Shown here in pieces: positions 32,908 through 61,514 of a stretch of 64,000 bases of DNA (its first letter is position 1; each line of letters begins with the position of its first letter). A program made the translations under genes and the position numbers. The notes under the pieces were generated by a model that searched no databases, was not told the origin of the DNA, and saw only the letters and a program-made list of their open reading frames with translations. The stretch spans positions 62,001 to 126,000 of the forward strand of contig CATKZI010000001.1 in assembly GCA_949841365.1 (NCBI GenBank). Direction: 5' to 3'. The DNA comes from an uncultured Candidatus Melainabacteria bacterium (GTDB taxonomy: Bacteria > Cyanobacteriota > Vampirovibrionia > Gastranaerophilales > Gastranaerophilaceae).

Positions 32908-33042
32908 ATGCAAACAATAGAAAATGCTGCGACAACAATAAAAGAAATCTGGGAGTATCAACACCCCGTAATGCACACCTGGTTTGTTTTGAGTTCTTTA
33001 TCTTTGTGTGTTATGTTCGCTTTATTATATTTTGTAATCTAA
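32908..33042 (+). CDS. 44-aa single-pass membrane peptide
   Basis: Found by reading after GGAGAAGAAAG at 32897-32907, a good SD. MQTIENAATTIKEIWEYQ is polar, then HPVMHTWFVLSSLSLCVMFALLYFVI forms one membrane helix to the stop at 33042. Its stop overlaps the end of the convergent pilin gene by 4 bp. Family unknown; it resembles small membrane subunits or regulators. Confidence 0.6.
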   Translation: MQTIENAATTIKEIWEYQHPVMHTWFVLSSLSLCVMFALLYFVI

Positions 33043-33757
33043 GGCAGACATTCCCAATACGTTTTACCACTATCGTCAGGACAGGTATTTTCAACTGCGA
33101 AATGGGAACAACCGGCACCGTTTTGTGCATGTGTTGAGCTTTTTGAACAATAATTAGCATCCCCTTTCATTTCCCAATGTCCGTATTCTTTTGATCCTAT
33201 AGGAATTAATTTTCCCTTATTTGATAATGAAAAATAAAATATATCATGCCCCATAGCATTTGGTTTAGCTTTTGGTCCGTTAGTATCAATAACAATCCAA
33301 TTACCAAAACAATTATACATCCCGCCAATAGCAGATCCGTCAGAAACAATTCTCGACGGTAATTGAGCACATTGATTATAGCTGCCTTCTTTTTTAGTAT
33401 AAGTCTTTATATCCCATTTACGATTAACATAGTATAATCTGGAAACATTTTTATCATTTATGACTTTATATTTGCTGTATAAATCCGCAAAAAATTCGGT
33501 ATTGGTATCACCCGAATTACCGGAAAGAGTTGCATACATATCAGGGTCAATAGAAAATAATGCCTGCTGTAAAGAAGAATAGGCCTTTTTAAATTGAGCT
33601 TCCATCTGTTTTTGATGATGCCTTGCCATAAGTGACGGCATTGTCATTGCCGCAACAACTCCTATAACTCCCAAAGTAATTAAAACCTCAGCAAGGGTAA
33701 AAGCTAAGCTATGAGTGCCCCCCCCCCGAAATTCTGACAATTATATATTTTATTCAT
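33039..33757 (-). CDS. prepilin-type protein, out of frame at a poly-G tract
   Basis: The best start is ATG at 33757, 9 bp after GGAGG. From it the frame reads MNKIYNCQNFGGGAL, then stops, because of a 10-G tract (33718-33727). With 11 or 8 G the frame joins the long open frame (33039-33740): THSLAFTLAEVLITLGVIGVVAAMTMP, a type IV prepilin leader with the processing site before F, followed by about 200 residues of pseudopilin body with Cys-rich end (NGAGCSHFAVENTCPDDSGK). A TTG at 33740 is the only in-frame start as written and has no SD. I read this as a phase-variable gene in the OFF state. Confidence 0.8.
33718..33727 (-). repeat. poly-G(10) tract in pilin leader
   Basis: Ten C on the plus strand (G on the coding strand), located at codons 11-14 of the pilin reading frame. 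The window is AT-rich, and the only other such run is at 53772, at the same place in another pilin. Confidence 0.9.
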
Positions 33758-33796
33758 AAATAAGCTCCTCCCTTTCACTTATGATATAATAATTTT

Positions 33797-38661: not shown

Positions 38662-39324
38662 ATGACAAAAAGATTCGGCTTCACACTTGCAGAAGTGTTG
38701 ATTACATTAGGTATCATCGGGGTTGTAGCAGCAATGACTATGCCTACATTGATGAACTCAACTCAAGGTGCTCAATACAAAGCAGCTTACAAAAAAGCTT
38801 TGTCAGCTTTAGGTCAAGCAGTTACATTGAACGTTGCATTGGACGACAGCAGTTTCGCTGATACTGACGCTGGTACAGCAGGTTCTGCAGATGCAGCAGG
38901 CACAAACAAAGACATACCTACTATCGGTAGTATCTTGAATGCACGTATGAACGTTGTTAAAGTAACTAAAGGTGACGGTGTTGGTTATACTATTACTGAT
39001 GCATCACTTCCATCAGCTACAAAACTTTCTCAAGCTGGAACAAATACAACATTGTTCTTTAACGATGGTATTACATTTACATTCGTTGCAGGTGACAAAG
39101 GATGTTCTTCAGGATTAGCTGGTACAGCTGACAATATTTGTAAAGGTTACATCGACGTAAACGGAGCTAAAGGACCTAACAAAGTTGTTTCTTGTTCTAA
39201 CGCTAATGCTACAGCAGAAAACTGTGTTGCAGAAAACCCAACAGACGTATATCCTGTTAAATTCTACAACCAAACAGTATTACCAAACTCTCCTGCAGCA
39301 AGAGCTGTTCTTTACGGAAAGTAA
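38662..39324 (+). CDS. type IV pilin-like protein
   Basis: 220 aa. Leader MTKRFG, then FTLAEVLITLGIIGVVAAMTMPTLM, the N-methylation-type prepilin helix with Glu at +5. The body is Ala/Thr/Asp-rich with four Cys near the C-terminus (GCSSG, NICKGY, VSCSN, ENCVAEN) and a closing motif YPVKFYNQTVLPNSPAARAVLYGK shared with the 60658 protein. It should be cut by prepilin peptidase and assembled at the inner membrane. Leader SD AAAGGTGAAAAG is identical to that of the 60658 paralogue. Confidence 0.92.
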   Translation: MTKRFGFTLAEVLITLGIIGVVAAMTMPTLMNSTQGAQYKAAYKKALSALGQAVTLNVALDDSSFADTDAGTAGSADAAGTNKDIPTIGSILNARMNVVKVTKGDGVGYTITDASLPSATKLSQAGTNTTLFFNDGITFTFVAGDKGCSSGLAGTADNICKGYIDVNGAKGPNKVVSCSNANATAENCVAENPTDVYPVKFYNQTVLPNSPAARAVLYGK

Positions 39325-52891: not shown

Positions 52892-53802
52892 TCAATCATT
52901 TAAATATTTATAACTGCAGCCCGCTCCTGCAATACATTCAATAGAGTGGCAACTAGCATAACCTATATCTTTTGAACAACCTGAAGAACCATAAGCCGAA
53001 TTATCATATCCGTCTGAACCGATTGCACCGAGCGGAACCATCTTATTTTCAAAGAGTTGAACTCCAAACACATCTTTTCCTACCATATTCGGTCCCTTTT
53101 GCCATCCGTTAACATCTGCAACAACTGCCGGTTGTCCTTCTCCGCCAAAATAAAGTACAGTACCATCTTCCAGCAATACAGCCTGTAAATCAATTGCTTC
53201 CCTACCCAATGAAAAACCCGATTGAGGACCTTTATATGATATATCAAATCGTTTTCCGGCATAACCGCGTCTATATATTTGATATTTCCCACCTAAAGAT
53301 GTATAGCAACTGCCCGAATAACAATACCATACATGAGCATCAACCCCATCTTTACATTTATAATCTGTAAATGTATACGAGTCATAAGAACTGCAAGTTT
53401 TAACAACTTTCAATTTAGACAAAAACTCATACATAAATTCAGGATTCCAATAACCATAGCTCAAATCTCCAATAGGGTTTCCGTTAGTACACTTATTCCA
53501 ATCATATTTTAAGTGCGTAGCGCAAACTTCAATATCTTGAGCCTTTACTTGATTGTATGCATTATGAAGTATAGAATAAGTCTTTTTCCATCTGGTAATA
53601 TTTATTCTATCTTGAATTTTTGCAACAATCACAGGCATTGTAACTGCAGCAACAACTCCAATTATCCCAAGAGTAATCAAGACCTCAGCGAGAGTAAAAG
53701 CCAAGCGTGACGCTTGACCCGCCACATGGATTTTGGAAAAGCTTTCAAACAATGGAGACTTGCTTAAATTGCCCCCCCCCCGAAGCTATGCAAATTTTTC
53801 AT
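52892..53802 (-). CDS. prepilin-type protein, out of frame at a second poly-G tract
   Basis: ATG at 53802 follows GGAGG by 5 bp. It reads MKNLHSFGGGAI-stop because of a 10-G tract (53772-53781). One more G (or two fewer) joins the long frame, giving a 302-residue protein whose leader is about 32 residues (GNLSKSPLFESFSKIHVAGQASRLA) before FTLAEVLITLGIIGVVAAVTMP. The body has at least ten Cys (e.g. VKTCSSYDSYTFTDYKCK, WYCYSGSCYTS, YASCHSIECIAGAGCSY), suggesting several disulfides. As written only a TTG at 53752 could start it, with no SD. Same gene design and same tract length as 33039-33757. Confidence 0.8.
53772..53781 (-). repeat. poly-G(10) tract in second pilin leader
   Basis: Ten C on the plus strand, within the context TTCG(10)CA on the coding strand, which is the same context as the tract at 33718. 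Confidence 0.9.
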
Positions 53803-53810
53803 ATTACCTC

Positions 53811-54254
53811 CTATTCTTCCAGTTCTTTTCTTATATCATCAACAGTTACATGTAAAACAGGAGAATTTTCATCCTTGCGTAAAACTACGTTCTTAATCCC
53901 CGATTGTACAATAAACCTTTTACACAAAATACAAATAAAATTATGTCCCCAAATATACATTGTAGCATCTTTACAGCGGTCTTGACCTGCCTGAATTATA
54001 GCATTCTGTTCGGCATGAATTGAACGGCAGGTTTCATAACAAGTCCCTGATTTAATATTATTTTTAATTCTGTAACATTCTCCGCGCTCATAGCAGGATT
54101 CAACCTTAGAGGGAGTTCCATTGTAGCCTGTTGCCTTAATCTTTTTATCTTCACCGACAATAACAGCACCAACCTGCGCTCTGATACAGTTTGATCTGCT
54201 TGCACAAGTTTTAGCCAAATCTAAAAAATAATCTTCCCATGACTTAATTTCCAT
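53811..54254 (-). CDS. deoxycytidylate deaminase family protein
   Basis: 147 aa. Zinc-binding motif HAEQNAIIQAG (about residue 75), and FICILCKRFIVQSGI supplies the two Cys (CxxC, usually PCxxC). N-terminal LAKTCASRSNCIRAQVGAVIVGEDKKI is typical of dCMP deaminase/ComEB. It converts dCMP to dUMP for thymidylate synthesis. The gene ends 8 bp from the pilin start region, on the same strand. Confidence 0.92.
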   Translation of the reverse strand: MEIKSWEDYFLDLAKTCASRSNCIRAQVGAVIVGEDKKIKATGYNGTPSKVESCYERGECYRIKNNIKSGTCYETCRSIHAEQNAIIQAGQDRCKDATMYIWGHNFICILCKRFIVQSGIKNVVLRKDENSPVLHVTVDDIRKELEE

Positions 54255-60657: not shown

Positions 60658-61422
60658 TTACTTACCGTACAATACAGCTTTAGCTGCAGATGATGCAGGA
60701 AGTACAGTTTGATTATAGAATACTACAGGATAAATATCTGTAGGATTTGAAACTTTACAAGTTTGACCTGATGTATCTTTATCACAAGCAACTACTTTGT
60801 TAGGACCTTTTGTGCCATTTACATCAATTACACCATAACAAGGCGCATCAGGTACACCTGAGGCATCATCTTTAATACAGCCTTTCGCATCAGCAGCTTT
60901 ATATGAAAACATTATGCCGTCGTTAAAGAACAAAAATGTATCAGGAGCTATTGCATTTGTTGCTTCCGTACATGTTTCTTTACCTTCTGTTGTTGTACAA
61001 GTTTCAGATTTAACAGCTGCGATTTTTGTTTTTGCAGCCTCATCATAACCACTTTCTGCAGCAGTAGCAGCTTTAACAATATTCATTCTTGAATTTAAAA
61101 TACTTCCAACTGAATCACCATCTGTACCTTTATCAGTTTTACCGGTTGTACCAGCAACTGTATCTGCAAAGTTAGCACCATCTAATGCCACATTTAATGT
61201 AATTGCCTGTCCTATTGCTGATAATGCTTTTTTGTAAGCAGCCTTATACTGTGCACCATTTGTCTGGTTCATCAATGTCGGCATTGTCATAGCTGCTACA
61301 ACCCCGATAATACCCAAAGTAATCAACACTTCAGCCAGAGTAAACCCGAAGTTTAGTTTGCTGTTCGGCATGGCTACGTGCGTAGCACCTTCTGCCAGTG
61401 TGAAGCCAAAACGTTTTGTCAT
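60658..61422 (-). CDS. type IV pilin-like protein with doubled leader
   Basis: 254 aa from ATG at 61422 (AAAGGTGAAAAG upstream, identical to the 38662 pilin). It begins MTKRFGFTLAE, then an insertion GATHVAMPNSKLN, then FGFTLAEVLITLGIIGVVAAMTMPTLM. So the F-T-L-A-E processing motif occurs twice, 20 residues apart; only the second precedes the hydrophobic helix. The body and closing motif (YPVVFYNQTVLPASSAAKAVLYGK) match the 38662 protein, including the Cys pairs. It should still be processed at the second site, giving a 24-residue leader. The two FGFTLAE copies differ at silent sites, so this is not a recent tandem duplication. Confidence 0.88.
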   Translation of the reverse strand: MTKRFGFTLAEGATHVAMPNSKLNFGFTLAEVLITLGIIGVVAAMTMPTLMNQTNGAQYKAAYKKALSAIGQAITLNVALDGANFADTVAGTTGKTDKGTDGDSVGSILNSRMNIVKAATAAESGYDEAAKTKIAAVKSETCTTTEGKETCTEATNAIAPDTFLFFNDGIMFSYKAADAKGCIKDDASGVPDAPCYGVIDVNGTKGPNKVVACDKDTSGQTCKVSNPTDIYPVVFYNQTVLPASSAAKAVLYGK

Positions 61423-61452
61423 AATCTTTTCACCTTTCTTTTTAAAATAACC

Positions 61453-61514
61453 TTTCAAAAACTATCCTTATCAATCCTCTATGTTTCTATATGTATAAAT
61501 CATAGTTTTTGAAA
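61453..61514 (-). promoter_or_regulatory. 13-bp inverted repeat in the pilin leader
   Basis: TTTCAAAAACTAT (61453-61465) and its exact reverse complement at 61502-61514, inside the transcribed leader. A palindrome TAGTTTTT-G-AAAAACTA overlaps at 61503-61519. A leader hairpin could control translation or stability. Confidence 0.55.

What the first reader, a model, noticed from the sequence alone, without database searches (positions are those of the whole stretch)
53772..53802. Second pilin with the same 10-G switch at the same position
The 302-residue, Cys-rich prepilin at 52892-53802 also has ATG with strong SD, then TTCG(10)CA and a premature stop. Two independent genes with the same tract length, context and effect make a sequencing error less likely and point to a system of switchable pilins in this lineage.
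Basis: partly seen in the sequence, partly recalled or inferred. Interest (0 to 1): 0.75.

Follow-up and report, generated by a model that had tools for sequence, protein, structure and literature searches.

The report
Mostly-off bank of switchable pilins
In this gut bacterium's genome 39 of 63 pilin-like genes carry a short run of G:C letters just after their start, usually ten long, and 34 of those 39 are out of frame, so each such pilin would be made only in the occasional cell in which the run has likely slipped to another length, giving cells of one strain different surfaces.

Summary
Confirmed, and larger than described. At 53772-53781 (-) a G10 run lies between a well-placed ATG and the FTLAEVLITLG prepilin motif and puts the pilin out of frame; the 33.7-kb pilin shows the same. 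The genome has 63 prepilin motifs, 39 with such a run in the leader; 34 of 39 are out of frame. Pooled with relatives, 137 of 148 FTLAEVLxTLG prepilins are in frame only at n mod 3 = 2, in every codon phase and with G or C on the coding strand; length is 10 in 90 of the 105 not fixed by the search. Controls argue against sequencing error: FTLAEMMVV prepilins are in frame in 7 of 7, and within the genus and named set 11 of 14 genes with internal runs are in frame at length 10. A database protein 100% identical to the 33.7-kb pilin has an in-frame leader implying G8. Best reading: slipped-strand phase variation with a default-OFF pilin repertoire in Gastranaerophilales. Open: expression, switching rates, frameshifting as an alternative, and why the G lies on the G-rich strand in this genus.

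The parts
53772..53781 (-). G10 run in the prepilin leader (the finding)
53800..53812 (-). ATG (53802-53800) and Shine-Dalgarno AGGAGG (53812-53807) of the 53.7-kb prepilin
   Evidence: read from sequence
52892..53752 (-). open prepilin frame downstream of the run (286 codons from a TTG), FTLAEVLITLG with F codon at 53698
   Evidence: TIGR02532 16.8 bits against cut-off 16.3; Pfam N_methyl 16.5 bits, below its cut-off 21.2
53702..53716 (.). palindrome CAAGCG-N3-CGCTTG next to the predicted cleavage site
33718..33727 (-). G10 run in the leader of the second window prepilin
33755..33773 (-). ATG (33757-33755) and Shine-Dalgarno AGGGAGGAG (33773-33765) of the 33.7-kb prepilin
   Evidence: read from sequence
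33039..33740 (-). open prepilin frame downstream of the run; a database protein 100% identical over 98% of it has an in-frame leader
   Evidence: this fragment is just below the TIGR02532 cut-off (14.7 against 16.3), the locus is over it (18.2)
38662..39324 (+). prepilin without a run (control)
60658..61458 (-). prepilin without a run (control), leader with a duplicated FTLAE stretch

Best explanation
The G10 run at 53772-53781 puts this prepilin out of frame, and it is one of 39 leader runs in this genome that likely work as slippage switches, each predicted to turn its pilin on only in the minority of cells in which the run has another length. Shown: position between ATG and prepilin motif, frame states, the shared frame rule, length differences between loci and genomes. 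Inferred: the runs change by slipped-strand mispairing during replication; ten is a resting length and the pilin genes are selected to be out of frame there; prepilin peptidase removes the leader together with the Gly (or Pro) stretch, so the mature pilin would be the same at any in-frame length; each lineage of cells would display a small, changing subset of about 37 pilins. Untested: transcription, protein, switching rates, surface display.
For: 39 of 63 prepilin motifs in the genome carry a run, 34 of 39 out of frame. 137 of 148 VL-type prepilins share the need n mod 3 = 2 in all three sum-preserving codon phases and both run orientations, so the sum of the frames is what is kept, which ties the upstream ATG to the pilin. 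Lengths spread around 10: 90 at 10, 7 at 9, 5 at 11, 2 at 12, 1 at 13 of 105. FTLAEMMVV prepilins in frame 7 of 7, including two with need 2 that stand at n = 11. P0122 implies a G8 in-frame allele of the 33.7-kb pilin. In a genome of another genus with other flanks, 10 of 10 classified prepilins are out of frame at 9 or 10. Pilus machinery present: one prepilin peptidase and four ATPase matches over cut-off. No stop was reported inside any of the 63 prepilin matches.
Against: All lengths are consensus calls of assemblies, without reads. Only one same-locus length difference was found, its source is hidden, and G8 is deduced from the protein; two other searches gave no in-frame allele. Need 2 far outnumbers need 0 (137 to 5), which a bare 'off at ten' rule does not predict. 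MutS1 is present, though G10-G13 runs in meningococcus switch alike with and without mismatch repair (PMC4085013, passages). Outside the genus and named set, internal-run genes show no rule (2 of 6 need 1). No PDB fold match.
Confidence: 0.74

Rival explanations
1. Programmed slippage at expression: RNA polymerase adding a base, or the ribosome slipping back by one, at G10/C10 would make a low level of every pilin in every cell without any DNA change.
For: Need 2 at n = 10 is exactly one such slip away, and need 2 outnumbers need 0 by 137 to 5.
Against: Runs of 9, 12 and 13 occur, and two FTLAEMMVV prepilins with need 2 stand at n = 11 rather than 10. All codon phases are used, and the same rule holds whether the mRNA would carry G10 or C10. 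The link to the G-rich replication strand points to DNA.
Confidence: 0.17
2. Sequencing or assembly error: runs are really 11 and are called one short.
For: MAG consensus; nearly every VL-type pilin would be intact at 11.
Against: FTLAEMMVV prepilins are in frame as assembled 7 of 7, five of them at 10, and 8 genes with long coding sequence on both sides of a run are in frame as assembled at 10; one more there is in frame at 9. Orthologues of L021 keep ten bases with interruptions. The named records carry contig names of different assemblies (NODE, k127, k141, CAG scaffolds).
Confidence: 0.04
3. The pilins are silent donor cassettes or dead genes, and the G run is a recombination signal as at Neisseria pilE.
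For: Most copies are unexpressed as assembled and many; leaders carry repeated inserts.
Against: No stop was reported inside any of the 63 prepilin matches. The 39 run-bearing prepilins of this genome have an ATG with a Shine-Dalgarno-like sequence by the script's rule (that rule was part of the classification), and a recombination signal would need no reading-frame rule. A single G10 run is not a four-run G4 motif (recalled).
Confidence: 0.05

Closest known systems
Neisseria Opa proteins (CTCTT repeats in the leader-encoding sequence of each opa copy; PMC3745409, passages)
   Same: A dispersed family of surface proteins, each with its own repeat in the leader-encoding sequence, switched by frame.
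   Different: There 11 copies in strain FA1090 and a pentamer; here 39 prepilins in one genome, a G:C run, out of frame at the common length; organism, protein family and repeat are unrelated.
Campylobacter jejuni poly-G/poly-C contingency loci (PMC4965091, passages)
   Same: Dispersed G/C runs of about 8-12 in surface genes; 29 loci in NCTC11168.
   Different: Not a pilin repertoire; no shared default-off frame rule that I saw in the passages read.
Neisseria pilE/pilS antigenic variation (recalled, with the reference list of PMC3745409)
   Same: Variation of type IV pilins; a G-rich element near pilE.
   Different: Works by gene conversion into one expression locus; here the copies have their own starts and no expression locus was found or sought.
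Type IV pilins and pseudopilins
   Same: N-terminal motif, predicted long helix (residues 14-71), profile matches to geopilin and PilA chains over the N-terminus.
   Different: The rest of the protein has no significant PDB match; leaders are up to tens of residues long with inserts.

Membership tests
SSR-mediated phase-variable (contingency) loci | Simple repeat inside the gene whose length sets the frame | tested here: met
SSR-mediated phase-variable (contingency) loci | Repeat length differs between isolates at the same locus | tested here: inconclusive
   One case: G10 here, G8 deduced from P0122; spread between loci and genomes is clear
SSR-mediated phase-variable (contingency) loci | Reversible switching at high rate | not testable with these tools
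   needs reads or cells
Type IV pilin-like proteins | Prepilin motif with conserved Glu and hydrophobic helix | tested here: met
   Pfam N_methyl below its cut-off for both window fragments
Type IV pilin-like proteins | Prepilin peptidase and assembly ATPases in the genome | tested here: met
Type IV pilin-like proteins | Pilin fold matching solved structures | tested here: inconclusive
   Foldseek: nothing at E <= 0.001; profile search matches N-termini of pilins
Type IV pilin-like proteins | Assembly into a filament | not testable with these tools
   -
Programmed frameshift genes | One fixed slippery length and phase | tested here: not met
   lengths 9-13 and all three phases; the preference for need 2 remains in its favour
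Neisseria-type pilin gene conversion | Four-run G4 signal and silent cassettes without starts | tested here: not met
   single G10 run at each window pilin, each with ATG and Shine-Dalgarno; the definition is recalled

The most novel reading that the evidence does not exclude
Gut Gastranaerophilales keep a chromosome-wide bank of dozens of pilins, each held out of frame by a G:C run that rests at ten, so that random slippage dresses every clone in a different few pilins; the runs are tied to the replication strand, with G on the G-rich strand whichever way the gene points, which makes replication itself the dealer of pilin combinations.
Probability: 0.45. Interest if true: 0.85.

Novelty: new variant of a known kind. 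Interest (0 to 1): 0.76.

Why it matters
If right, an uncultured group of gut bacteria has a very large slippage-switched surface repertoire (151 runs of nine or more G in one genome), aimed at type IV pilins and built to be off by default. It would explain why database pilins of this group often begin downstream of the run, would make MAG comparisons of missing pilins misleading, and gives a natural case for asking how resting length, slippage bias and replication strand set the fraction of cells that express a gene.

Tried and rejected
Mobile-insert origin: orthologues of a non-prepilin run gene (L021) in two relatives keep the same ten-base length with substitutions (GAGATAGGGG in G213, GGGGGAGGGG in G198), so no insertion was seen there; a third, 33% identical relative (G207) has no such stretch. 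Loss of MutS as the cause: MutS1 matches in 191 of 191 family genomes, over cut-off in 153, the own genome among them. Close orthologue of the 53.7-kb pilin in the genus: none in the 32 other genomes searched (best 53% identity), so no locus-by-locus comparison. The search for related loci in genome contigs confirmed no relative. A third pilin search gave no in-frame allele. PDB fold search gave nothing significant. Strand rule outside the genus: not found in three genomes of another genus (adjacent listed pairs on the same strand 7 of 18, 7 of 16, 5 of 15).

Literature: 0 papers held 'Gastranaerophilales' with 'phase variation'; 'Melainabacteria' with 'pilin' 6 and 'Gastranaerophilales' with 'pili' 9, listings only; seen as listings. 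Passages were seen of PMC3745409, PMC4965091 and PMC4085013 and outline and abstract of PMC2831843. That this is not in print rests on these searches of an open-access subset only.

Full report
What was checked. The run at 53772-53781 (-) is ten G between TTC and CA, 18 bases after an ATG with a strong Shine-Dalgarno sequence. At this length the frame stops within about a dozen codons, while FTLAEVLITLG and the pilin body lie in another, open frame. The window pilin at 33.7 kb has the same arrangement. Chance gives 0.05 G9 words per 64 kb against four found (two runs), or 0.18 runs of eight or more against two.

The genome. The window is part of a 1.69-Mb, 19-contig assembly, 99% complete. It holds 50 runs of eight or more G. 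TIGR02532 finds 63 prepilin motifs (62 over cut-off); 39 have a run within 300 bases upstream and 24 do not; among the 39 the coding strand carries G in 22 and C in 17. Of the 39, 37 are of the FTLAEVLxTLG type (34 out of frame, 3 in frame) and 2 of the FTLAEMMVV type (both in frame). One prepilin peptidase and four type II/IV ATPase matches are over cut-off. The prepilin at 166.8 kb of contig 1, in the same 20-kb stretch as two of the ATPase genes (155 and 163 kb), has no run.

The frame rule. The script asked for a start codon with a Shine-Dalgarno-like sequence before the run and a prepilin motif after it. It was run on 292 deduplicated runs: own genome 49 (of 50; one at a contig end dropped for short flank), two genus genomes 61, other genus loci 53 (29 loci around runs and 29 fetched as relatives of the window pilin), named public genomes 96 (fetched with a pattern that fixes G10), other family genomes 33. 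162 were prepilins with a start, 8 had a prepilin motif but no start, 122 had neither; the last group includes long-leader prepilins and runs near contig ends. Of the 162, 148 are FTLAEVLxTLG, 9 fell in the MMVV class and 5 have other motifs (1 in frame, 4 out; not counted further). Of the 148, 137 need n mod 3 = 2, 6 need 1 and 5 need 0; 137 are out of frame and 11 in frame; 146 had one candidate frame, 2 were ambiguous. By group the out-of-frame share is 34 of 37, 38 of 40, 22 of 25, 40 of 43 and 3 of 3. Need 2 occurs in sense phases (0,1) 63, (2,2) 13, (1,0) 13 and antisense phases (1,0) 35, (2,2) 9, (0,1) 4, so it is not one copied cassette. Without the named set, lengths are 10 in 90, 9 in 7, 11 in 5, 12 in 2 and 13 in 1 of 105. 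Against an even choice of frames the binomial chance is 7e-52, but these genes are related, so this is descriptive only.

Controls. Prepilins reading FTLAEMMVV are in frame 7 of 7: five at n = 10 with need 1, two at n = 11 with need 2. Pfam finds YadA_head repeats in one (1.1e-51), and YadA-like repeats are visible in the four whose sequence continues; the other three end soon after the motif with their contig or locus. Two large prepilins reading YTLAEIVIV (L154, L242), which the script put in the same class, are out of frame. Genes with long coding sequence on both sides of a run (own genome, genus and named sets): need n mod 3 = 1 in 11 of 14; as assembled 9 of the 14 are in frame, 8 at length 10 and one at 9. 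The three exceptions are the run at 13556 of L146, the n = 9 run of an N-masked L146 gene with two runs, and L126. In other genera (6 such genes) there is no rule: needs 1, 2, 0, 1, 2, 0. The genes include a glycosyltransferase-like, an autotransporter-like and a hexapeptide protein. So within this genus ten is a length at which ordinary genes work and the pilin bank does not.

Polymorphism. P0122 is 100% identical to the 33.7-kb pilin over 98% of the query and carries the leader MNKIYNCQNF-GGG-THSLA; with the same flanking codons that means G8. It stands for 13 member sequences on one 3766-base contig; its source is not shown. P0001, 95% identical to the 53.7-kb pilin, has another leader. Several database homologues begin just downstream of where the run would be, as expected where gene callers meet an out-of-frame leader.

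Relatives. Runs of nine or more G occur in 159 of 191 family genomes and 20 of 20 genus genomes, up to 151 in one. In a genome of another genus (G123), with other flanks (mostly TAC or CAC before, TAA or TAG after), 20 runs gave 10 classifiable prepilins, all out of frame at 9 or 10, 8 with need 2 and 2 with need 0; runs in G077 and G185 gave no classified prepilin.

Strand. In the own genome adjacent runs on a contig share a strand in 38 of 39 pairs; the exception lies between 260 and 298 kb of contig 1. GC skew of the sampled pieces is negative in 12 of 13 before 262 kb (24-44 kb is positive), near zero from 262 to 302 kb, and positive in 7 of 7 from 306 kb. G192 68 of 69, G172 12 of 12, G200 3 of 3 (listed places only); G123, G077 and G185 7 of 18, 7 of 16, 5 of 15. 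Skew over loci of up to 8 kb agreed with run strand in 80 of 97 in the named set. So within this genus G tends to lie on the G-rich strand whichever way the gene points. I have no tested explanation; run birth or slippage depending on the replication template is the obvious idea.

Mechanism. Slipped-strand change of run length fits the spread of lengths, the intact controls and the G8 allele. MutS is present, but in meningococcus no difference was seen between mismatch-repair mutants and wild type for G10-G13 runs (PMC4085013, passages), and C. jejuni runs switch at about 1e-3 per division (PMC4965091, passages). The encoded Gly or Pro stretch is predicted to be cut off with the leader; the repeats of opa genes likewise lie in the leader-encoding sequence (PMC3745409, passages). 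Beyond ordinary phase variation, the near-universal need 2 and the default-off state want explaining. Selection for rare expression explains off at ten; the preference for 2 over 0 could mean that switching on by contraction would be too frequent, or that slippage at expression contributes. I keep that second reading at 0.17.

Structure. AlphaFold2 on the downstream frame with 29 homologues gives pLDDT 85 with a long N-terminal helix (14-71) and a beta-rich body; no PDB match at E <= 0.001; a profile search matches N-termini of geopilin and PilA chains.

Limits. Consensus assemblies, no reads, heuristic starts, related genes counted as separate cases, one same-locus polymorphism.

Noticed in passing
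whole genome (G000) and G192, G172, G200: G runs lie on one strand per contig, following GC skew, whichever way the gene points; three genomes of another genus do not show this.
   Followed up: partly
flanks of the runs, e.g. 53760-53785 and L010-L058: Runs are bounded by C on both sides and often followed by a T-rich stretch and AGC, in both gene orientations and also in most non-prepilin genes; no explanation.
   Followed up: partly
53702-53716 and five other genome sites: The palindrome CAAGCG-N3-CGCTTG occurs at six sites in the genome, all six right beside a prepilin motif.
   Followed up: partly
61344 and L102, L104: Prepilin leaders with a second FTLAE stretch and an insert such as GATHVAMP before the real motif.
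   Followed up: no
L016, L018, L113, L119: Prepilins fused to YadA-head-like adhesin repeats, also with G runs, in frame.
   Followed up: partly
L023, L041, L042, L052, L032: G or C runs inside a glycosyltransferase-like gene, an autotransporter-like gene, an acyltransferase, a hexapeptide protein and a membrane protein.
   Followed up: partly
G192 C54, C64, C70: Pairs of G runs 27-29 bases apart.
   Followed up: no
family genomes: Some genera with weak MutS1 matches (for example g36) have almost no G runs; seen by eye, not tested.
   Followed up: no
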